A DNA stretch of 64,000 nt from Desulfurococcus mucosus DSM 2162 (GTDB lineage Archaea; Thermoproteota; Thermoprotei_A; Sulfolobales; Desulfurococcaceae), in NCBI RefSeq assembly GCF_000186365.1, contig NC_014961.1, positions 372,001-436,000 of the forward strand, in the 5' to 3' direction. The translations under genes were made by a program, and so were the position numbers. Below are positions 13,142 through 55,459 of the stretch, piece by piece. How positions within the stretch are numbered: position 1 is the first letter of the stretch; the number at the start of each line of letters is the position of its first letter. The notes beneath the pieces were generated by a model. It was not told the DNA's origin. It ran no database searches and saw only the letters and a program-made list of their open reading frames with translations.

Positions 13142-13175
13142 CTGACCTCCTCCTCGCCCTTTAGGGCGGGGTCAG
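13142..13175. repeat. solo right end of the TnpB element family / bidirectional hairpin
   Basis: The sequence CTGACCTCCTCCTCGCCC starts like the right end of the two TnpB-related elements in this window (CTGACCTCCTCCCCGCCC at 17419 reversed and at 54701). It then folds back on itself: CTGACC pairs with GGTCAG (13170-13175), and CGCCCT (13155-13160) with AGGGCG (13163-13168). It lies between two convergent genes and supplies the stop region of the anion transporter. It is probably a relic of an element end, now possibly serving as a terminator. Confidence 0.5.
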
Positions 13176-15620: not shown

Positions 15621-16055
15621 CTAAGGCAGGGTAACCTGCTTCGGGTACTCCTTACCGCTCGCGGTGTGGAGCTTTACCTCCACCATCTGCCCAGATGAGA
15701 AGCCGCTCGATATGGTTATGGTGAGACCCTTGGTTTCACCCGTTTTTATCGAGTATGGTAGCGTAATATTGAGGGTTACACCTACACTACCGTACGGCTT
15801 ACCGTTTATGAATATGTTGTCTATTGTGACATCCGTGGTTCCAACGTTCTTAACCTGGAGCGTTATTGTCCAGTATGTGGTGTTCGTAGTAGTATTGGTA
15901 AATTGCTCCGCGTAGGCGGTGATTATCTGGAGGTTCTCGGTTGCTGTGAAGGAGCCGACGAGCCCTGTCATCCATAGTGCTACTGCTATTGCTATGGCTA
16001 TTGTTACTGCGACGATTATTACTGTGGCTATTACTGGTGAAATAGCCTTCTTCAC
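15621..16055 (-). CDS. type IV pilin-like secreted protein
   Basis: This 144-residue protein has the archaeal class III leader: a short basic start MKKA, then ISPVIATVIIVAVTIAIA and a hydrophobic helix to about residue 34. Archaeal prepilin peptidase would cut before the helix. The mature part is beta-rich and threonine/asparagine-rich, as in extracellular pilins. The start is GTG at 16055, with GAGGTG ahead of it and a strong TATA box (16093-16100). It is therefore a surface filament or adhesin subunit. No assembly ATPase or membrane subunit is nearby, so it relies on genes elsewhere. Confidence 0.85.
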   Translation of the reverse strand: MKKAISPVIATVIIVAVTIAIAIAVALWMTGLVGSFTATENLQIITAYAEQFTNTTTNTTYWTITLQVKNVGTTDVTIDNIFINGKPYGSVGVTLNITLPYSIKTGETKGLTITISSGFSSGQMVEVKLHTASGKEYPKQVTLP

Positions 16056-16092: not shown

Positions 16093-16100
16093 TTTATAAA
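16093..16100 (-). promoter_or_regulatory. TATA box of the pilin gene
   Basis: TTTATAAA lies 38-45 bases upstream of the pilin GTG start, leaving a short leader with GAGGTG. The TnpB element begins only about 8 bases further upstream (after TTAC at 16104-16107), so any upstream activator site has been displaced while the core promoter remains. Confidence 0.65.
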
Positions 16101-16107
16101 TGCTTAC

Positions 16108-17419
16108 CACGAAAGAAAGCCTCGCCTTTCAAGGCGAGGATATTAAGTTTAAAATGTTGTAGTATAATAGAGGTGGGGTTTCCTCTATGGGCGGTGAGGG
16201 TTTCCTAACCCTGCACACAGTCTTCAGGGTTAGCCCTGAGCCCGTGGGGGAGCCCCTTCTCTTAAGCCTGCTTAGGAGGTACCGTGATGCGCTGAACTAC
16301 TCGATCAAGAGGATTCACGGGTATATGGAGGAGAACGGTTTGAAGAAAGTGCCCGGCGACGGCGCGGTGCACAAGTTGCTCTATGGCGAATTGAAGACCG
16401 TATTCAGCCTCCCATCGAGGATTGCCATAGACTGTTACAGGGAGGCGAAGGCCATTCTTAAGAGCTGGCTGGGCAACGGTGGAAATGGCAGGTTGCCGAG
16501 GGCTAGGAGGCCGAGGATGTGGCTGACGGAGAAATATGGGTATAGGGTTAGAGACGGCTATGTCGAGATCATAGGAGGCTTAAAGCTTAGAGTAATCGGC
16601 TGGGACAGGCGCTACGACCAGTACCCGAGCCGCCAGGCCGTCTTGACGTATAGGAACGGAAAGTTCCTGCTTAGGGTTGCGAAGAGGGTTCCAAAGCCTC
16701 AGCCCATCAGCCCCGTCGATGTCTTGGCGGTGGATGTAAACGAGGGGTTCATCGTGGCCGGCAACCACCGGGTCGAATACAGGTTTGGGACCGCAGTCGA
16801 GAAGGCGGTGAGGTACAGGGAGCTCGCTGAAAGGTTGCAGAGGAAGTACTCTAATGGGAGCTATCGAGCGTGGCTTAGGCGGAGGGGCATACGGGACAGG
16901 GTGAGGCGTTTCCACGAGAAGGCTAGGAGCATTATCGAGGACTGGGCTAGGAAGACTTCGCACGAGATAGTGGTGGTAGCTAGGCAAAACAACTACGCCA
17001 TTGCAAGAGAGGACTTGACGTACTTGGTAGAGTCTTTAAGAAAGCTACCGAGACAGCATAGAACGAGGCTGATTCTGCTAGGCTACAGGAGGTTTGAGTA
17101 CTGGCTTGACTGGCAGTGTGAGAAACACGGGGTGCCGTGCATAGCCGTCAACCCCAAGGATACCTCTTCCACCTGCCCGAGATGCGGTTCAAGGCTCATT
17201 GAAAACGGGTACAGGAGGTTGAAGTGCCCTAGTTGCGGTTTTGAAGCCGATAGGGACACTGTGGCCGTATTAAATATACGTAGAAAAGCCCTAGCCCGGA
17301 TGGGGGGATCTCTGACCACCCCGACTGCCCCGCAGATGACAGATGTAGCCCCGAACAAATGCGGGGAACCCGTGAACCGCCCTAAAGGAAACCCCCTTTT
17401 AGGGCGGGGAGGAGGTCAG
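16108..17419 (+). mobile_element. IS200/IS605-family TnpB-only element (IS1341 type), copy 1
   Basis: The element is about 1312 bp. The left end has a perfect 9-bp hairpin (CCTCGCCTT at 16120-16128, AAGGCGAGG at 16131-16139) and is preceded by TTAC, the kind of target motif used by IS608-like elements. The right end holds a folded region (17348-17366 and 17378-17407) and ends GGAGGAGGTCAG at 17419. The same ends appear in inverse orientation at 54701-54970. No tnpA transposase is present, so mobility would need one supplied from elsewhere. Boundaries are inferred by comparing the two copies; the outer 6-9 bases of the left end differ. Confidence 0.8.
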
Positions 17420-17464
17420 GGTCTTGTTAAGCCAGTTGAAGCCTGCGTGGTATGCTGTGATTGA
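16187..17464 (+). CDS. tnpB: TnpB, RNA-guided nuclease of IS605-type element
   Basis: This 425-residue protein belongs to the TnpB family of RuvC-type, RNA-guided DNA nucleases. The RuvC acidic residues appear intact: D in DVLAVDVNEG, E in IAREDL and D in FEADRDTVAVLNI. The zinc ribbon is CPRCGSRL then CPSCGFEAD. The N-terminal half is the usual helical and beta recognition part. GAGGTGGGG precedes the ATG. The frame has no stop inside the element: it runs through the right end as GRGGGQ and adds 15 residues encoded antisense to iorB before TGA. The extra tail is therefore host sequence. Confidence 0.93.
   Translation: MGGEGFLTLHTVFRVSPEPVGEPLLLSLLRRYRDALNYSIKRIHGYMEENGLKKVPGDGAVHKLLYGELKTVFSLPSRIAIDCYREAKAILKSWLGNGGNGRLPRARRPRMWLTEKYGYRVRDGYVEIIGGLKLRVIGWDRRYDQYPSRQAVLTYRNGKFLLRVAKRVPKPQPISPVDVLAVDVNEGFIVAGNHRVEYRFGTAVEKAVRYRELAERLQRKYSNGSYRAWLRRRGIRDRVRRFHEKARSIIEDWARKTSHEIVVVARQNNYAIAREDLTYLVESLRKLPRQHRTRLILLGYRRFEYWLDWQCEKHGVPCIAVNPKDTSSTCPRCGSRLIENGYRRLKCPSCGFEADRDTVAVLNIRRKALARMGGSLTTPTAPQMTDVAPNKCGEPVNRPKGNPLLGRGGGQGLVKPVEACVVCCD
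17300..17436 (+). ncRNA. predicted omegaRNA (guide RNA) of the TnpB element
   Basis: TnpB elements make a guide RNA from the 3' part of tnpB and the right end, with the guide taken from the first 16 or so bases outside the element. Here the right end has strong hairpins (CCCCG...CGGGG at 17348-17366, and CCGCCCTAAA paired with TTTAGGGCGG at 17378-17407). The guide would start at 17420 (GGTCTTGTTAAGCCAG). Exact ends are not visible in sequence; the call rests on family knowledge. Confidence 0.4.
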
Positions 17465-18001
17465 TGTTGACCCGGCTTCGCCGGGTATTGCTTCCAGTAT
17501 TGCTTCCTCCACGGTGCTGTGGGGGAGTAGTTTCAGCGAGGCGTTTAAGGCGCCGAGCATCACTATGTTGGCTGCCCTCGGGTTCCCTGCCTCGCTGGCT
17601 ATCCTCCTGGCTGGCACGATTACCCCGCCTGCTTTAACCACTTGCTCCATGTATATGCTTCTATCCTGGGTTCTACGGGTTATTGAGGCGAGGCTGGGTG
17701 GCTTGTACTCGTCTGCCACTAATAGTACTCCACGGGGCTTCAAGTACGCTGTGTTCCTCACGGCCTCCACGAGTTCAAGCCCTACTAGTGCATCAGCCTC
17801 GCCGCGGCTGAAGACCGGTGAGTGCACTGAGACCCCTATCCTCACGTAGCTTACGACGCTCCCGTATCTCTGAGCCATTCCAAGGGTTTCACCGGTTCTC
17901 ACCGAGAGCCCTGTCTTCACGGCTGCCCCGGCGAGTATTCTTGAAAGCGTTAGCCCGCCCTGCCCTCCCACGCTCGCGATAAGTATGTTCACGGTTTTCA
18001 A
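17399..18001 (-). CDS. iorB: indolepyruvate:ferredoxin oxidoreductase, beta subunit
   Basis: This is the small (gamma/beta-type) subunit of the enzyme that oxidatively decarboxylates aryl pyruvates from aromatic amino acids to aryl-acetyl-CoA, with ferredoxin as acceptor. The pattern SVGGQGGLTLSRILAGAA near the N-terminus and GSVVSYVRIG are typical of this subunit. Its ATG overlaps the iorA stop by 4 bases, so the two are translated together. The final codons LTSSPP and the stop are encoded by the right end of the TnpB element (17399-17419). Joining the two sides of the element would give a different end, VSIYKVKA and a stop, suggesting that this was the original C-terminus. Confidence 0.93.
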   Translation of the reverse strand: MKTVNILIASVGGQGGLTLSRILAGAAVKTGLSVRTGETLGMAQRYGSVVSYVRIGVSVHSPVFSRGEADALVGLELVEAVRNTAYLKPRGVLLVADEYKPPSLASITRRTQDRSIYMEQVVKAGGVIVPARRIASEAGNPRAANIVMLGALNASLKLLPHSTVEEAILEAIPGEAGSTSITAYHAGFNWLNKTLTSSPP

Positions 18002-19875
18002 GCAGCGTCACCACCGGGTTTTATCGCGTTGAAGCCGCAGTACCTTGCGCAGAGCCCGCACCCTGTGCAGTCCTCCACGGCTATCACGGCCTTCCCCTCG
18101 GAGAGGAATATTGCTGGGCAGCCTGTTGCAGCTATGCATGCCCCGCACCCTGTGCACTTACCGGGGTCAACGGTGTAGGGTGCTGTCCTCCTCGCCCGCC
18201 TCCTCTCCTGGAGGGCGCAGGGGTGTTTCGCCACGAGTACTCTCACCCCTTCGCCCTCCAGGAGCCCTGCTATGGCTTCCACTGCTTCGTCGAGCCTGTA
18301 GGGGTCTACCACGGCCACCTTGTCCACGCCTATTGCTTTAACCACGTCGACTATGCTGATGCTTCTCGCAGCCCTACCGGTTTCAGTCCTGCTCCACGCC
18401 GGCGTCGACTGGTGCCCCGTCATGGCTACCACGTCGTTGTCCAGTATGAGGACCAGTAGGCTCACCTTTTTATGGACGGCCTCTATGAGCGAGGGTATCC
18501 CGGCGTGGAAGAACGTGGAGTCCCCTATCACGGCGACGATCGGCCCCTTGAACCCTGAGAGCCTCAGCCCCATTGCCATGGAGATGCTTGCACCCATACT
18601 GTGCTCCGTCCATATGGAGCCGAGCGGCGGGTTCACTGAGAGAGCGTAGCAGCCTATGTCGCCGAACACCGGTACGTCGCTTGGCTTGTATCCAAGCCTC
18701 ATGAGTGCTGAGCGGAGGGCTATGAACGTGAACCTATGGGGGCATCCAGGGCAGAGGGGCGGCGGCCTCTCAGGTGCCTCCACGCCTCCAGCGGGCTGCT
18801 GGATGGGTGCTGGGGTGGGGAGCCCTAGTGCCCTGGCTATGAAGTTCTCCACGAGCAACGGGTTTAACTCTCCTTCAAGCGGGAGGCCGCCTGTCTTCTT
18901 CCCGTAGACCACTGTCCCTGAGCCAGCCTGGTGGAGGAGCACGGTGAGCTCCTCCTCGATGAAGGGGTCGAGTTCCTCGACGACGAGTATCCTCCTGCAT
19001 CCCTCTATGCTTCCAGCTATGAAGCCTGAGGGGAGGGGGTGTATGAGCCCTAGTTTCACTATTCTCACATCCCCTGTTAAGCCGAGTGATTCAACGGCTT
19101 CAACCACGTAGTTGTATGCAGCCCCCTCCGTCACCACGCATGTGTCGCCTCCCCCCTCCACCCTGTTCAACCCGTGTCTCCCAGCGGCCTCCTCGGCTCT
19201 TGAAAGCTGCTGGTTGACCCATCTATGCCTCTCGAGATTCCACCTCATGCCAGCCCTCACATACCTGGCTGGATCCCTCTTGAACTCCTTGAACCCCTTT
19301 GGCTCCCTGACCCCGCCTAAGACGACTTCTCCAACAGCATGGTTCACCCTTGTAGTAGTCCTCAGGATCACGGGGAGCTTGAGCTCCTCGCTGATGTCGA
19401 AGGCTGCTACAGTGTAGTCCTTGGCCTCCTGCGGGCTGGACGGCGAGATAGCTGGGAGCTTGGCGAGCTTCGCCAGCCACCTGCTGTCCTGCTCCGTCTG
19501 CGTTGTATGGGGCCCCGGGTCGTCTGCAACCAGCACTACTAGCCCGCCTTCAACACCGCTGTAGGCGGCTGAGACAACGGGGTCTAAGGCCACGTTGAGC
19601 CCCGGCGCCTTCATTGTTGCAAGCGCTCTGGCACCAGCGATCGCCGCGCCCAGCGCTATTTCAAACGCAACCCTCTCGTTGACAGCCCACTCAGCGTAGA
19701 AGCCGAGGCCTCCCCCATACCTCTGCAGGGTTTCAACGACCTCACTGCTCGGTGTGCCAGGGTAGCCGGTTGCAACGTAGACGCCTGCCTCCACGGCCCC
19801 CCTTGCAATCGCCTCGTTCCCCATGAGGGCCAGCCTAGAGCCCGGGGGAGCCTTCAACGGGTTGAAGCCTGCCAT
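17998..19875 (-). CDS. iorA: indolepyruvate:ferredoxin oxidoreductase, alpha subunit
   Basis: This is the large subunit (625 residues) of the indolepyruvate:ferredoxin oxidoreductase, which with IorB degrades aromatic amino acids in peptide-fermenting archaea. The N-terminal half is the pyrimidine domain (ATGYPGTPSSEVVE). The C-terminal half is the thiamine-diphosphate domain with GDIGCY and GDSTFFHAG then LDNDVVAMTG. Two ferredoxin-type clusters follow at the C-terminus (CTGCGACIAATGCP and CTGCGLCARYC). TATA (TTTATAT, 19915-19921) lies about 40 bases before the ATG. The acyl-CoA product is the substrate of the acyl-CoA synthetase whose beta subunit is encoded divergently at 19994. Confidence 0.95.
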   Translation of the reverse strand: MAGFNPLKAPPGSRLALMGNEAIARGAVEAGVYVATGYPGTPSSEVVETLQRYGGGLGFYAEWAVNERVAFEIALGAAIAGARALATMKAPGLNVALDPVVSAAYSGVEGGLVVLVADDPGPHTTQTEQDSRWLAKLAKLPAISPSSPQEAKDYTVAAFDISEELKLPVILRTTTRVNHAVGEVVLGGVREPKGFKEFKRDPARYVRAGMRWNLERHRWVNQQLSRAEEAAGRHGLNRVEGGGDTCVVTEGAAYNYVVEAVESLGLTGDVRIVKLGLIHPLPSGFIAGSIEGCRRILVVEELDPFIEEELTVLLHQAGSGTVVYGKKTGGLPLEGELNPLLVENFIARALGLPTPAPIQQPAGGVEAPERPPPLCPGCPHRFTFIALRSALMRLGYKPSDVPVFGDIGCYALSVNPPLGSIWTEHSMGASISMAMGLRLSGFKGPIVAVIGDSTFFHAGIPSLIEAVHKKVSLLVLILDNDVVAMTGHQSTPAWSRTETGRAARSISIVDVVKAIGVDKVAVVDPYRLDEAVEAIAGLLEGEGVRVLVAKHPCALQERRRARRTAPYTVDPGKCTGCGACIAATGCPAIFLSEGKAVIAVEDCTGCGLCARYCGFNAIKPGGDAA

Positions 19876-23141: not shown

Positions 23142-24749
23142 CTAGAGTCTTAGCCCTCCCCCAGCTATTATTTCTTCCCTCCCAGCCACCCTGAAGCCTC
23201 TCTCAGCCAGGATGCCTGCCACCACCGAGTACTTTAAGCCAAGGGCCTTCGAGTACACGAGGCGGACGCTGCACCCCTCGCCGGCTCCAAGCTCCCTGAT
23301 CACCGAGGCCAGGGCCCCGCCGTATGCAGCATAGTAGTCTTCGAGGAGCCTTGGGAAACCAGTCGACTCCCCCAGCCTCAGCCTCCTCGTCCTCCCCCAT
23401 GCCTCATACCTGTAGAGGGCTTCAACACCCTCCCTGAGTATAAGCGTGTTGAGGCCGAGCACCACGTCGAGCACCCTGCCCTTGAAGACGTAGGCCCCTT
23501 TCCCCGGGGTTTTAACATAGAGGAAAACCCTGCCTCCCACCCCTGTATTGGAGAGCAGGATGCTGTAGACAGCGTGGAGGAGTAGGTCTAGTTCAACCGG
23601 GTTCACGGAGGTGAGGTCGGCTACGACGACCAGGTCTCCCCCGCCCCCCATCCCCGCTCCCTCTCCCTCCACAGCATACTGCTTCACGTAGATACCCTCT
23701 CCTCCTTCACGGCTCAAGGTTTTCTTCCAGTGGATGAGCCGCAGGGGGTCCCCGGGCTGGTATTCTCTTACACCAGTGTACTCGCCCCTGTATGCTTTCA
23801 CAGCCTCCCCGATGCTCTCCACGAGCTCCAATGGCGTTGCAAGCCTCGCCCTGAGGGCTACTGTAGCACCGTACCCGGGGACCCCTGCACCCGGGGCAGC
23901 AGGGTTGGAGCCGCCTCCAGGGGACCCGGCTGCACCCCCTGTGCCGGCGGGCTCCACGAGTACCCTTAGCACTAATGGTGCCTCAAGGTATTCAGCGTAC
24001 CTTGCGAGGACTGCCCGGGCCTTCTCCATGGCTTCCGCCAGCCTCGGCGTCACAGTGTACTCGAGCACGTAGGGTCCATGCGTGATCGACGCGAGCCCCC
24101 TGGGGTCCCTGAGCTCGACGACGAGCCTCAGCCTGCTGCGGCCGAGCCCGCTTGCAACCCGCCTGTACACTGCTTCACCAGCCCCGTTCACCACGCCTGA
24201 AGCCTCCTCCACGCCGTCGACTATCAGCCTGTATACTGCTTCACCCTTAACCATTAGTCTCGCCTTCACCACCACCTCGTCCCCTGGGTGGAGGCCTCCA
24301 CGCGTTGCCGAGACCTCTACACGGGACCCGCTGAGCCTCAACTGCTCCCTCAGGGAGGATGCTGCGAGCACGCCTAGCGCTGTGAGGGCTGTTGAAAACG
24401 CGGCTGGGTACGCTATGTAGAGCGGTGTGAAGGCTGCCACTGAGGCCGTGACCCTGCCGGCGAAACCCGTCCCCCTGTATCTCTCATAGTAGTAGGCGTA
24501 GCCTAGGAGGAGGGCTAGGGTTGAAAGCGCCAGGGGGGCTGGGTGGAGTGTCGCGGAGGAGACCGCTATGCTCGACGCGTATGCTGAGAGGAACACGGTG
24601 TAGCCTCCTCTAGCGGCGAGGGGGAGTAGTGCTATGGCTGCAGCGGCTGCAACCCCGTAGTCTCCTCTGATGTGTGATGCAAGTATTACTGAGGATGCCT
24701 CGAGGAGGAGTATCAGCGGCTTATATGGTTTAATGCCTCCCGTATACAT
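23142..24749 (-). CDS. DUF58 domain membrane protein
   Basis: This 535-residue protein has about four N-terminal membrane helices (residues 8-130) and a long soluble part. The DUF58 signature is YQPGDPLRLIHWKKTLS near residues 345-365. The following part resembles a von Willebrand A-type fold (DLVVVADLTSVN). Proteins of this type are always found next to MoxR ATPases and are thought to be their chaperone clients. It overlaps the preceding gene by about 20 bases. A glycine-rich insertion is present around residues 270-295. Confidence 0.85.
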   Translation of the reverse strand: MYTGGIKPYKPLILLLEASSVILASHIRGDYGVAAAAAIALLPLAARGGYTVFLSAYASSIAVSSATLHPAPLALSTLALLLGYAYYYERYRGTGFAGRVTASVAAFTPLYIAYPAAFSTALTALGVLAASSLREQLRLSGSRVEVSATRGGLHPGDEVVVKARLMVKGEAVYRLIVDGVEEASGVVNGAGEAVYRRVASGLGRSRLRLVVELRDPRGLASITHGPYVLEYTVTPRLAEAMEKARAVLARYAEYLEAPLVLRVLVEPAGTGGAAGSPGGGSNPAAPGAGVPGYGATVALRARLATPLELVESIGEAVKAYRGEYTGVREYQPGDPLRLIHWKKTLSREGGEGIYVKQYAVEGEGAGMGGGGDLVVVADLTSVNPVELDLLLHAVYSILLSNTGVGGRVFLYVKTPGKGAYVFKGRVLDVVLGLNTLILREGVEALYRYEAWGRTRRLRLGESTGFPRLLEDYYAAYGGALASVIRELGAGEGCSVRLVYSKALGLKYSVVAGILAERGFRVAGREEIIAGGGLRL

Positions 24750-25572
24750 AGTAGAGCACCAGTGTCACCAGCCCTATGAGCAAGGCTACGTGGAGCGGGG
24801 AGTAAACCTGACCCCGTATAAGGTGCCTTAGGAGCTCAGCGGGGTCCCTGAAAACCTCTGATTGATCCACGAGCACTCTTCTCCCGGCTGCAATGCAGTC
24901 GAGGAGCCCCTTATTATAGTGGAGCACGCTGTTCGCGAAGACGCCTCTAGCGGGGAAGACTATGATGACGCCGCCGCCCGCATCCACCCTTACCGCGACC
25001 ACGCTGGAGCCTATTGGCTCCCCTGGACTATAGGATCCATCCCCGTCTACATCGATGTATGAGAAGGGGCTGCTCCACGCTGCTGCAGCAGCCGCGCCGA
25101 TGGGGCTCACACTATAGGGTTCCTCGAGGACCACACGGGTCCCGCAGAACACTGTGGACGCGTTGACCAACCCCTGGTCCCCGGCGTTGTAGACTGGGTC
25201 GTAGACGGCTCCCTTAACCCCTGCGCCAACCCCTAGTGCTTCAAGCAGGCTCTCCGTGAAGCCCCTGGAGCCGTATGCGATGACGACGCCTCCCTTCTCT
25301 GCAAACCCCTTCAAGTAGCCTGCTTCAGCAGGGGTTAGAGGGTTCTCCCTACCGGTGATCAACACGTGTGAAGCCGGGTTAAACCCTTGGAGCCCGGATA
25401 GGTCTGCAACCACCATGACCCCTGGCAGCCCGGCTAGGTTGGAGGCCCCGTCTCCACCAGTATTGTAGACGCTGTAAGGCCTCGTGGAGGATGTGAGGGA
25501 GGCGGCCACGAGGCCGGCTGCAGCGGCGAGCAGTATGAAGAACACTGCTACAACCCTAGTCTTCAACGGCAT
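24730..25572 (-). CDS. DUF4350-like membrane-anchored protein
   Basis: This 280-residue protein has a signal-anchor at the start (residues 5-25) and a C-terminal membrane helix (about 260-278). Between them is a domain of the DUF4350/GATase-like fold with LITGRENPLTPAEAGYLKGF and GGVVIAYGSRGF, which in this family would lie outside the membrane. It is a regular member of MoxR/DUF58 operons and overlaps both neighbours by 15-20 bases. Its function is unknown; it lacks obvious catalytic residues. Confidence 0.72.
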   Translation of the reverse strand: MPLKTRVVAVFFILLAAAAGLVAASLTSSTRPYSVYNTGGDGASNLAGLPGVMVVADLSGLQGFNPASHVLITGRENPLTPAEAGYLKGFAEKGGVVIAYGSRGFTESLLEALGVGAGVKGAVYDPVYNAGDQGLVNASTVFCGTRVVLEEPYSVSPIGAAAAAAWSSPFSYIDVDGDGSYSPGEPIGSSVVAVRVDAGGGVIIVFPARGVFANSVLHYNKGLLDCIAAGRRVLVDQSEVFRDPAELLRHLIRGQVYSPLHVALLIGLVTLVLYYVYGRH

Positions 25573-27289
25573 CTAGGACACCCCTGTAGACCTCTCCTGC
25601 CTCACCGGGCTCCACCTTCCTCGCCGAGTAAAGGTCGCGTTCAGCGAGATGCATGAGCCTCCTCAACAGCTCCTTAACCCTCTCCCTGAAGCCGGCTGGC
25701 TCAACGCTCGCCGAGTAATGCTCCCTCAGTGTTTCATGGGGCCTGGGCTCCCTGACCCCCAGCCTGCTGAGCGCGTCGTAGTAGAGGAGGGCTATCCTCG
25801 AGGCGAACCCGGGTCCCCTGGGCCTCCCCCTGGCCCCGGGCCTCCGGATCCTGAATTGCGGCTGGAGGACTGTTGCCAGGCTTCTCCGTGCCACGGCGAC
25901 GGCTGCGGTGAGCGCGGCGGCGACGGCTGTGAGGGATGCAGTGTTCACCACTAGCAGGCTCCCCTTGTACACTGTGACGGCTCCGCTGCCTCCTTGCACG
26001 GCGACTTCGATGCTGAGCCATGTGGCGGGGAGGGGGCCTGCCCACGCCTCGATAACCATGGAGGCTTCAAGGGGGCCTGAGTAAACCATGGATCCACCGG
26101 CGTAAACCGTTATGTTGACGGGCCTCCCCTCATGGTTAACCACGTGGATCCCCAGTGTCCCCGTCCACGTGAACACGGGGGACGGGGCTTCCACGCTGAC
26201 CCCTATGCCTGAGGGTGCTCCCTGGGTTGAAGCATATACTGCTCTACACGCTGGCAGCGTGTCCACCCCGGGCTCCACGCATACCTCGACCCTCACCGCC
26301 TGCCCCACGGCCTGCTTGCTGGAGGCGTTGACGAGCAGTATGTTCACGCCTGGCTTCAGGCTCAGGTTTAACGCGTGCTCCCCGTTCACGGAGAGGGATG
26401 CATTGTAGGCGGCGTCGGAGTATATGGAGACGTTGAGGAGCCCTGCGCCGAGTAGCGATGCCTCCACGGTGATGGCTGGATGCCTGTAGACTGCTTTAAA
26501 CAGTTTAACTGCTTTAACCCTGGAGCCGTTTACCTCGGCGTCCACTGTGAAGGCGAACTCTAGGATTCCGCCGGCTCCAACGAGCCCGGCCACCCCTTTA
26601 CTCGCCAGCCTCCCTGCATCAGGGATCTCGATCACGCTGTAACAGTAGCTCCCCCTACACGTGTACCCTGGTGCATCCATGAGCACTAGTGAGGGCCACG
26701 TGTACAGCTTGATGGATGAGACCGAGACTCCTTCACCAAGGGTTTTCACCCATGCATGCACCTCCATCCCCGGGGTGTACGCGTCGAGGGCTGGCTGTAG
26801 GCCTGCCTCAAGGATCCCGCTCCACGCGGTCAGGTTCTCGGCGAGGTCCTCGAGGATGCTCCTCATCGATGAAACCCCTGCTTCAACCCGCTTCAGGGTT
26901 AACCCTGCTGCACCGGGGTCCCTTGAGCATTTTGAAAGCCTCTCAGCGTACTCTAACACGCTTCCCAGGGCGTCGGCTGCCTCAGCGATCCTGTACTGGG
27001 CGGCCGGGTCGCCTGGAGCCGTCTCCGAGGCCTCCTCAACAACCCTGTAGTACCCTAGGATGGCGAGCCATGCATCCCTGTGGAGCCCTGTGAGACCCGT
27101 GGGGGCGGGTGCGCCTGCAACGGCCTCGGCCAGTGTCCTCCCAGCTGGATCCAGTGTTGCAGCGGATGAAACGGCTTTATCCAGGAGTACCAGGTAGTAT
27201 AGGCAGCCTGCTCCCTCCCCCCTCGTGTAGACGGGTGTAGCAGTGATCACCGGGATCCCTATGAGGAGTAGGAGGAGCCATGTCTTCAC
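25556..27289 (-). CDS. large surface protein with C-terminal DUF4129-like region
   Basis: This 577-residue protein has a signal peptide (residues 1-18), a helical domain (about 20-165), beta-sandwich repeats (170-440), one membrane helix (about 450-470) and a cytoplasmic tail. The tail has a basic patch RRPGARGRPRGPG and then IALLYYDALSRLGVREPRPHETLREH, the pattern of DUF4129, which often sits in transglutaminase-like and MoxR operons. Cysteine pairs (AGCLYYL, SKCSRD, YTCRGSYC) may form disulfides outside. It is probably the main extracellular component of this operon. Family assignment of the tail is moderate. Confidence 0.65.
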   Translation of the reverse strand: MKTWLLLLLIGIPVITATPVYTRGEGAGCLYYLVLLDKAVSSAATLDPAGRTLAEAVAGAPAPTGLTGLHRDAWLAILGYYRVVEEASETAPGDPAAQYRIAEAADALGSVLEYAERLSKCSRDPGAAGLTLKRVEAGVSSMRSILEDLAENLTAWSGILEAGLQPALDAYTPGMEVHAWVKTLGEGVSVSSIKLYTWPSLVLMDAPGYTCRGSYCYSVIEIPDAGRLASKGVAGLVGAGGILEFAFTVDAEVNGSRVKAVKLFKAVYRHPAITVEASLLGAGLLNVSIYSDAAYNASLSVNGEHALNLSLKPGVNILLVNASSKQAVGQAVRVEVCVEPGVDTLPACRAVYASTQGAPSGIGVSVEAPSPVFTWTGTLGIHVVNHEGRPVNITVYAGGSMVYSGPLEASMVIEAWAGPLPATWLSIEVAVQGGSGAVTVYKGSLLVVNTASLTAVAAALTAAVAVARRSLATVLQPQFRIRRPGARGRPRGPGFASRIALLYYDALSRLGVREPRPHETLREHYSASVEPAGFRERVKELLRRLMHLAERDLYSARKVEPGEAGEVYRGVLDAVED

Positions 27290-54301: not shown

Positions 54302-55459
54302 ATGGGGATCCTGGTTACTGGTGGCGCCGGGTTTATTGGTAGTCACCTTGTAGCCGAGTTGTTGAGGCTTGGGTACGAGGTTGTTGTCCTCGACGACTTG
54401 TCCACGGGGTCCCTTGGCAATTTGAGGGGGTTGCTGGGTAGTGTGGAGTTCGTGAAGGGGGATGTAAGGGATTACGGTGTTGTCGAGGGGGTTGCTGAGA
54501 AGGCTGAGGCCGTGGTTCACTTAGCTGCCTTGATTGATGTGGCTGAGTCCGTGGAGAAGCCGGATCTCTACTTCGATGTCAACGTGCTTGGAACATATAA
54601 TGTCGCTAAGGCTTCGAGGAATACATCCGTCCTCGTCTACGCTTCCAGCTCAGCCGTGTACGGGGAGCCTGTTGAAACACCTATCCGTGAAGACCACCCT
54701 CTGACCTCCTCCCCGCCCTAAAAGGGGGTTTCCTTTAGGGCGGTTCACGGGTTCCCCGCATTTGTTCGGGGGTACATCTGTCATCTGCGGGGCAGTCGGG
54801 GTGGTCAGAGATCCCCCCATCTGGTTATCTCTGCTCGGGAACAACCCCTCGTTCACGAAGGGTTGCAGCCCCCTCATCGCTAAATACCTTTCCTCATCAC
54901 CATTACCCATACATAAAAAAAACAAGCCTATAAACCTTCATCCCCGCCTTGAAAGACGAGGCTTCCGGTTGTAAACGCCTTCTCCCACCTCCACGGGTAC
55001 AGGGGCGTTGTACTCAGGTTCTTCAACGTCTACGGGCCGAAGCAGTCTAAGGCGTATGCTGGAGTAGTAGTGGAGTTCTTGAAGAGGGCTCTCCATGGAC
55101 TACCCCCGGTGATATATGGGGATGGAGAGCAGACAAGGGACTTCATCCATGTAAGGGATGCTGTCTCAGCAATAGTGAAAGCTGTGGAGAGCGAGGGGGC
55201 GAGGGGAGTATACAATATTGGCTCAGGGGAAGCCATCTCAATAAACAGGCTTGCGGAAACCGTTTTAAAAGTCCTCAGCATCAACAGCCTCAAACCCATA
55301 CACCAGCAGCCGAGGAAAGGAGACATAAAACACTCCCACGCAGACATAGCGAGGGCATCAAGAGACCTAGGCTTCAAGCCAACAGTTAAACTCGAGGAGG
55401 GGATAAGGGAACTAGCAGCAGTACTCAGGCAGGAAGCTAGGCGTCAGCCAAATACCTAG
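54302..55459 (+). pseudogene. NDP-sugar epimerase/dehydratase interrupted by a TnpB-derived element
   Basis: The 5' part (54302-54700) is an extended short-chain dehydrogenase: VTGGAGFIGSHLVAEL, VVVLDDLSTGS and SSSAVYGEPVETPIREDHP. The 3' part (54971-55459) continues VNAFSHLHGYRGVVLRFFNVYGPKQ, YGDGEQTRDFIHVRDAV and a normal end. A 270-bp element lies between. Joined directly, the two parts are in frame (295 codons), but about 17 residues expected between them, including the catalytic Y-x3-K of the family, are missing. The host gene is therefore inactive even without the insertion. It would have made a UDP- or dTDP-sugar for the locus. Confidence 0.85.
54701..54970 (-). mobile_element. 270-bp miniature derivative of the TnpB element, copy 2
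   Basis: In minus orientation it carries the same left-end hairpin (CCTCGTCTTTCAAGGCGGGG, 54947-54960 region) and the same right end (CTGACCTCCTCCCCGCCC from 54701) as copy 1 at 16108-17419. It also has the last part of the tnpB reading frame (MGGSLTTPTAPQMTDV, then GEPVNRPKGNP), but the body of tnpB is deleted. The left end is flanked by GTTTAC on the minus strand, comparable to GCTTAC in copy 1. Like copy 1 it gives its host gene an LTSSPP tail and stop. Confidence 0.8.

What the first reader, a model, noticed from the sequence alone, without database searches (positions are those of the whole stretch)
16108..17464. TnpB element supplies a new C-terminus and stop to iorB; scarless joining restores a plausible original end
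The last seven codons of iorB (LTSSPP and stop) are exactly 17419-17399 of the element's right end. Joining the host DNA at TTAC (16104-16107) to 17420 gives an iorB frame that continues VSIYKVKA and stops. This fits the known scarless insertion of IS605-type elements after a short target (TTAC as in IS608). Copy 2 also has GTTTAC at its left end, pointing to (C/T)TTAC as the target and TnpB recognition motif.
Basis: partly seen in the sequence, partly recalled or inferred. Interest (0 to 1): 0.62.

Follow-up and report, generated by a model that had tools for sequence, protein, structure and literature searches.

The report
TnpB transposon capping the iorB gene
A small TnpB jumping element in the archaeon Desulfurococcus mucosus landed after a TTAC at the very end of the iorB gene and gave it seven new final codons including the stop; this is ordinary for such elements, but the element's guide-RNA end turns out to match an archaeal RNA family (HgcC) whose function has been listed as unresolved.

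Summary
Window 16108-17419 is a TnpB-only IS200/IS605-type element behind a retained TTAC (16104-16107). Its last 21 bases, read on the minus strand, are the final codons LTSSPP and stop of iorB. The genome is the 1,314,639-bp Desulfurococcus mucosus O7/1. It holds four intact tnpB copies, at least 42 right ends and no Y1 transposase gene. TTAC precedes 17 of 23 left ends; the base before it is unconstrained, so TTAC is supported and (C/T)TTAC is not. Scarless insertion is shown at another copy, where joining the flanks restores a short-chain dehydrogenase without a gap. It is not a safe general rule: joining the flanks of the window's own copy 2 leaves an epimerase 17 codons short, active-site motif included, and two more copies have lost flanking gene sequence. 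For iorB the join VSIYKVKA* is plausible, because relatives' tails after the conserved core are short and unconserved, but no empty-site strain is held. D. mobilis DSM 2161 (ANI 99.88%) is the strain to check. By-product: the right end aligns end to end with Rfam HgcC, and the best HgcC matches in 12 of 26 genomes sit at the 3' end of a tnpB gene. HgcC is therefore very probably an archaeal TnpB guide (omega) RNA.

The parts
16104..16107 (+). TTAC, retained host target at the left end (inferred TAM)
   Evidence: 17 of 23 left ends in the genome are preceded by TTAC, the other six differ at one base
16108..17419 (+). TnpB-only IS200/IS605-type element, 1312 bp
   Evidence: full-length copies elsewhere in the genome align from TTAC to this last base at 88-92%
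16120..16139 (+). left-end subterminal hairpin CCTCGCCTTTCAAGGCGAGG
   Evidence: DNA fold, z-score -3.2
16187..17464 (+). tnpB; the frame stays open through the right end and stops 45 nt inside host DNA
   Evidence: Pfam Cas12f1-like_TNB 71 bits, PDB TnpB matches; read-through in all four copies
17302..17419 (+). right-end (omega/re) RNA region, aligns end to end with Rfam HgcC
   Evidence: 26.1 bits in this copy, up to 48.0 bits in a 61%-identical Ignisphaera element
17420..17437 (+). predicted guide sequence (host flank, iorB antisense)
   Evidence: position by homology; only its own locus matches within two mismatches, one 3-mismatch site elsewhere
17399..17419 (-). element-supplied last codons of iorB: LTSSPP and stop
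   Evidence: translation
17399..18001 (-). iorB, indolepyruvate ferredoxin oxidoreductase beta subunit
   Evidence: Pfam POR PF01558 118.8 bits; overlaps iorA 17998-19875
15621..16055 (-). archaeal pilin-like gene on the left flank
   Evidence: homologs with ISPVIATVIIVAVTIA N-terminus in relatives
16093..16100 (-). TTTATAAA, likely pilin TATA box, left intact by the insertion
   Evidence: same motif about 36 bp before the start codon in the same-genus relative
54701..54970 (-). copy 2: short non-autonomous copy, target TTAC at 54974-54971
   Evidence: 124-nt right end 98% identical
54302..55459 (+). NDP-sugar epimerase split by copy 2; the joined frame lacks 17 codons with the YxxxK motif
   Evidence: alignment to eight relatives and PDB matches
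13142..13171 (-). 30-nt right-end stub just after the stop codon of a transporter gene
   Evidence: sequence CCCCGCCCTAAAGGGCGAGGAGGAGGTCAG

Best explanation
An IS200/IS605-type element with tnpB but no transposase gene of its own was inserted, as single-stranded DNA by a Y1 TnpA acting in trans, directly after a TTAC on the plus strand. That site lay between the 3' end of iorB and the promoter of a pilin gene. The insertion made no target duplication. Because the element points against iorB, its right end, read backwards, gives the codons LTSSPP and stop, so IorB kept its conserved core and exchanged a dispensable tail. In turn tnpB takes its stop codon from the host flank. The right end also encodes the TnpB guide RNA scaffold, and the guide is the iorB antisense sequence from 17420. 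TnpB would be expected to cut TTAC plus that sequence, that is, the empty site. Shown here: the element ends, the TTAC, the tail, the read-through, and scarless insertion at another copy. Inferred: TnpA in trans, the guide and cut, and that VSIYKVKA* was the original iorB end.
For: Ends are shared by 42 right ends and 23 left ends in the genome. TTAC precedes 17 of 23 left ends, chance about 1e-37. Joining TTAC to the right flank at genome 24491-25808 restores a 262-aa dehydrogenase, GLRVL|VTASTRGLG, aligned without a gap to 2z1n. A relative, G029, carries the same left end TTAC|AACTGAAAGCT directly before a Y1 tnpA and a further frame at the tnpB position. Four tnpB copies are intact and 87-93% identical. 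IorB relatives end 2 to about 12 residues after the last conserved AYxxGxxW/Y, with unrelated tails. The left end retains TTAC as in IS608, which inserts after TTAC without target duplication (PMC8612924).
Against: No Y1 transposase is found in this genome or in the two other genomes of the genus, so the mobilising enzyme is not identified. Three other coding sites show lost host DNA beside precise element ends, so a deletion at the iorB site cannot be excluded. No empty-site strain is held.
Confidence: 0.85

Rival explanations
1. Insertion with a left-side adjacent deletion: the element entered at a TTAC near iorB's end and host DNA between two TTACs was later lost, so the present join is not the original iorB end.
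For: This is what copy 2 in the same window shows: the join is in frame but exactly 17 codons short, as expected from a deletion between two GTAA repeats. The radical SAM gene at genome 442874 lost about 140-150 N-terminal residues found nowhere else in the genome, and the nitroreductase-like frame at 523750 is cut.
Against: The conserved part of iorB is complete and the pilin promoter, from its TATA box to the start codon, is complete, so any loss would be confined to unconserved sequence. At genome 24491 no loss occurred.
Confidence: 0.25
2. The LTSSPP tail is an adaptive, selected replacement of the IorB C-terminus.
For: The operon with iorA is intact and iorB stayed open.
Against: The same LTSSPP tail appears wherever a right end lies in this phase, including dead gene fragments such as the copy-2 epimerase and the nitroreductase fragment. 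Tails of IorB relatives are not conserved.
Confidence: 0.03
3. An IS607-type (serine recombinase) element rather than an IS605-type one.
For: TnpB-only elements can derive from either, and no Y1 TnpA is present in the genome.
Against: Subterminal left hairpin, TTAC target, and a same-end relative that carries a Y1 TnpA.
Confidence: 0.04

Closest known systems
IS608 (Helicobacter pylori), IS200/IS605 family
   Same: TTAC target kept on the left, no target duplication, subterminal hairpins, tnpB
   Different: no tnpA in this element or genome; the right end finishes GGTCAG; many short copies with no tnpB
ISDra2 TnpB-reRNA (Deinococcus radiodurans)
   Same: TnpB with C-terminal zinc/RuvC part and a right-end RNA overlapping the 3' end of tnpB, guide taken from the right flank
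   Different: TTGAT target there, TTAC here; activity shown there, not here
Sulfolobus islandicus TnpB7 (IS605-type)
   Same: thermophilic archaeal TnpB; the -5 base of its TAM does not matter
   Different: TAM TTTAA; its right end finishes TTCAC, which is not cleaved (PMC11043419)
Rfam RF00062 HgcC and RF02656 sot0042
   Same: the right-end RNA aligns end to end with HgcC, and several of the same loci also match sot0042, already regarded as an omega RNA (PMC12558985)
   Different: the window copy scores 26 bits, below the HgcC gathering score of 50

Membership tests
IS200/IS605 family (TnpB-only group) | TnpB with C-terminal TNB/zinc domain | tested here: met
   PF07282 71.2 bits; TnpB chains in PDB
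IS200/IS605 family (TnpB-only group) | insertion 3' to a short fixed target, kept at the left end | tested here: met
   TTAC before 17 of 23 left ends, six others one base off
IS200/IS605 family (TnpB-only group) | no target duplication, scarless join | tested here: met
   shown at genome 24491-25808; host loss at three other sites
IS200/IS605 family (TnpB-only group) | subterminal hairpins at both ends | tested here: met
   left hairpin z -3.2; right hairpin present but z only -1.5
IS200/IS605 family (TnpB-only group) | mobilised by a Y1 TnpA | tested here: inconclusive
   no PF01797 in this genome; Y1 TnpA directly after the same left end in G029
TnpB RNA-guided nuclease system | right-end RNA with guide from the flank, cleavage beside the target motif | not testable with these tools
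   conserved right-end RNA region seen, no activity data
Rfam HgcC RF00062 | score at or above 50 bits | tested here: not met
   window copy 26.1 bits; relatives 48.0 and 53.5 bits
Rfam HgcC RF00062 | HgcC matches lie at the 3' end of tnpB and end in a variable guide | tested here: met
   12 of 26 loci have a TnpB/OrfB frame 5' in the same sense, 11 over the Pfam cut-off; the model runs past the right end by 8-14 nt, 13 in most

The most novel reading that the evidence does not exclude
The archaeal non-coding RNA family HgcC (RF00062), known since 2002 and described in 2017 as of unresolved function, is the guide (omega/re) RNA of archaeal TnpB elements, with the last roughly 13 positions of its model falling on the guide. 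The many HgcC loci without a gene beside them would be short transposon copies that may still supply guides to TnpB in trans.
Probability: 0.85. Interest if true: 0.55.

Novelty: new member of a known kind. Interest (0 to 1): 0.4.

Why it matters
The iorB tail itself is a neat but ordinary case of a transposon end lending a stop codon. More useful are two points. First, precise element ends do not prove that joining the flanks restores the ancestral gene: of four other coding sites that could be judged, one is clean and three carry host loss. Second, HgcC can be tested directly as a TnpB guide RNA. That would explain a two-decade-old orphan RNA and would say which of the dozens of solitary copies in hyperthermophiles are guide donors.

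Tried and rejected
The TTAC-plus-pyrimidine motif was rejected on 17 exact left ends. A flank swap between element copies, to explain the cut radical SAM gene, was rejected because its missing N-terminus is nowhere in the genome. A second empty or target site for the predicted guide was not found: only its own locus, plus one 3-mismatch site. An empty-site relative could not be found: the same-genus genome has iorB at 886 kb and the pilin at 601 kb, with other neighbours. A simple regular expression for tnpB found only 2 of 30 HgcC loci and was replaced by Pfam scans. RNAalifold gave little covariation, since the right end is too conserved.

Full report
What is there. The window is bases 372001-436000 of a complete 1,314,639-bp genome, the size published for Desulfurococcus mucosus O7/1 (PMC3111991). 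The element is 16108-17419, behind TTAC at 16104-16107. Its gene tnpB (16187-17464) has the Cas12f1-like TNB domain and matches solved TnpB proteins. The last 21 bases of the element, read on the minus strand, are CTG ACC TCC TCC CCG CCC TAA, the codons LTSSPP and stop that end iorB.

The ends are real. A search of the genome found four near full-length copies and dozens of short ones; 42 right ends match, nearly all with a last base equivalent to 17419 and the sequence GAGGAGGTCAG. Left ends were located with a motif that leaves out the four bases before it. Of 23, 17 are preceded by TTAC, and the rest by CTAC (3), TCAC (2) or TTGC (1). The chance of 17 is about 1e-37.

Is the join scarless? 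Four coding sites other than iorB can be judged. At 24491-25808 (genome coordinates) the join restores a dehydrogenase, MGLVEGLRVL|VTASTRGLGRG, which aligns with no gap to 2z1n. At copy 2 in the window, the join keeps frame but yields REDHP|VNAF where relatives have 17 more residues including YxxxK. The spacing fits a loss between two GTAA repeats, one expected in the ancestral PVRPLSPYG stretch as in G007 and one in the present GTAAAC; this last step is inference. At 442874 the element abuts the C-terminal 182 residues of a radical SAM protein whose N-terminal part, about 140-150 residues in relatives, is absent from the genome. At 523750 a nitroreductase-like frame is cut after 74 codons and the other flank is unrelated. 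So clean joins exist, but host loss is common.

iorB itself. Relatives of iorB (62% to 49% identity) end 2 to about 12 residues after the last conserved motif AYxxGxxW/Y, with unrelated tails: KNHR, RESVGEGCRGG, EENKVVQG, QQAL, DKR. A tail of KTVSIYKVKA is within that range, and so is KTLTSSPP. The pilin on the other flank keeps TTTATAAA about 37 bp before its start codon; the same-genus relative has the motif at about 36 bp. In that relative iorB and the pilin lie 285 kb apart, so the site has no held counterpart. D. mobilis, with ANI 99.88%, would be decisive (PMC4711178).

The exchange is mutual. In all four full-length copies the tnpB frame stays open through the right end and stops 12, 45, 63 or 104 nt into host DNA. 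The Ignisphaera relative stops earlier, at ...APNR*, so the stop was probably lost in the D. mucosus lineage.

Mobilisation. No Y1 transposase gene exists in this genome or in most relatives. In G029, however, the same left end, TTAC|AACTGAAAGCT, stands directly before a Y1 tnpA, with a further frame at the tnpB position. The simplest reading is a TnpB-only IS200/IS605 derivative moved in trans by a TnpA that is no longer present. That is inference.

The right-end RNA. The right end and the first 13 flanking bases align from first to last position with Rfam HgcC: 26.1 bits here, 48.0 bits in the Ignisphaera element, 38-46 bits in others. Across 300 genomes of the phylum, 57 have HgcC matches. 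In six D. mucosus copies the HgcC match ends 13 or 14 nt past the right end. In 26 loci (the best match of each genome, with a readable right end) the overhang is 8-14 nt, 13 in most. In 12 of them a TnpB/OrfB frame lies 5' in the same sense, 11 above the Pfam cut-off. Several of the same loci also match sot0042, which the authors of PMC12558985 treat as an omega RNA. HgcC was called functionally unresolved in PMC5732400. PMC4247193 reported three T. kodakarensis HgcC transcripts from within transposase genes without linking them to TnpB. No paper in the library holds both hgcC and TnpB, and the Rfam 15 paper lists HgcC without a function. Subscription papers are not searched, so priority cannot be claimed.

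TnpB motif. For ISDra2 the motif equals the insertion target (PMC8612924). In S. islandicus TnpB7 the -5 base is irrelevant and the right-end motif TTCAC is not cut (PMC11043419). By analogy TTAC plus the flank from 17420 would be cut and the occupied locus, GTCAG plus the flank, would not. This was not tested.

Noticed in passing
17302-17432; L126, L128-L133, L140-L169: The right-end RNA of the TnpB elements aligns end to end with Rfam HgcC (RF00062), an archaeal RNA family of unresolved function; the best HgcC matches in 12 of 26 genomes lie at the 3' end of a tnpB gene.
   Followed up: yes
54302-55459: Copy 2 splits an NDP-sugar epimerase; the joined frame is in phase but lacks 17 codons with the YxxxK motif, fitting a deletion between two GTAA sites.
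   Followed up: yes
16187-17464 and copies in L009, L010, L011: All four tnpB frames have no stop inside the element and take their stop codon from host DNA 12-104 nt beyond the right end.
   Followed up: yes
right ends in L036 (local 2558), L018 (local 2525), and others: The right end finishes AGGAGGTCAG, a near-perfect Shine-Dalgarno sequence, and some genes start directly after it (RE|ATG with a 344-codon frame in L036; a start codon 12 nt after it in L018), so right ends may supply ribosome-binding sites.
   Followed up: partly
L010 (genome 442874): A full-length element copy abuts a radical SAM gene that has lost about 140-150 N-terminal residues, absent from the rest of the genome.
   Followed up: yes
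L017 (genome 763324-763365) and L012 (genome 700117-700154): Minimal 38-42 bp elements made of a left end fused directly to a right end, one of them nested in another copy.
   Followed up: no
13142-13171: A 30-nt right-end stub directly after the stop codon of a 427-codon membrane transporter gene.
   Followed up: no
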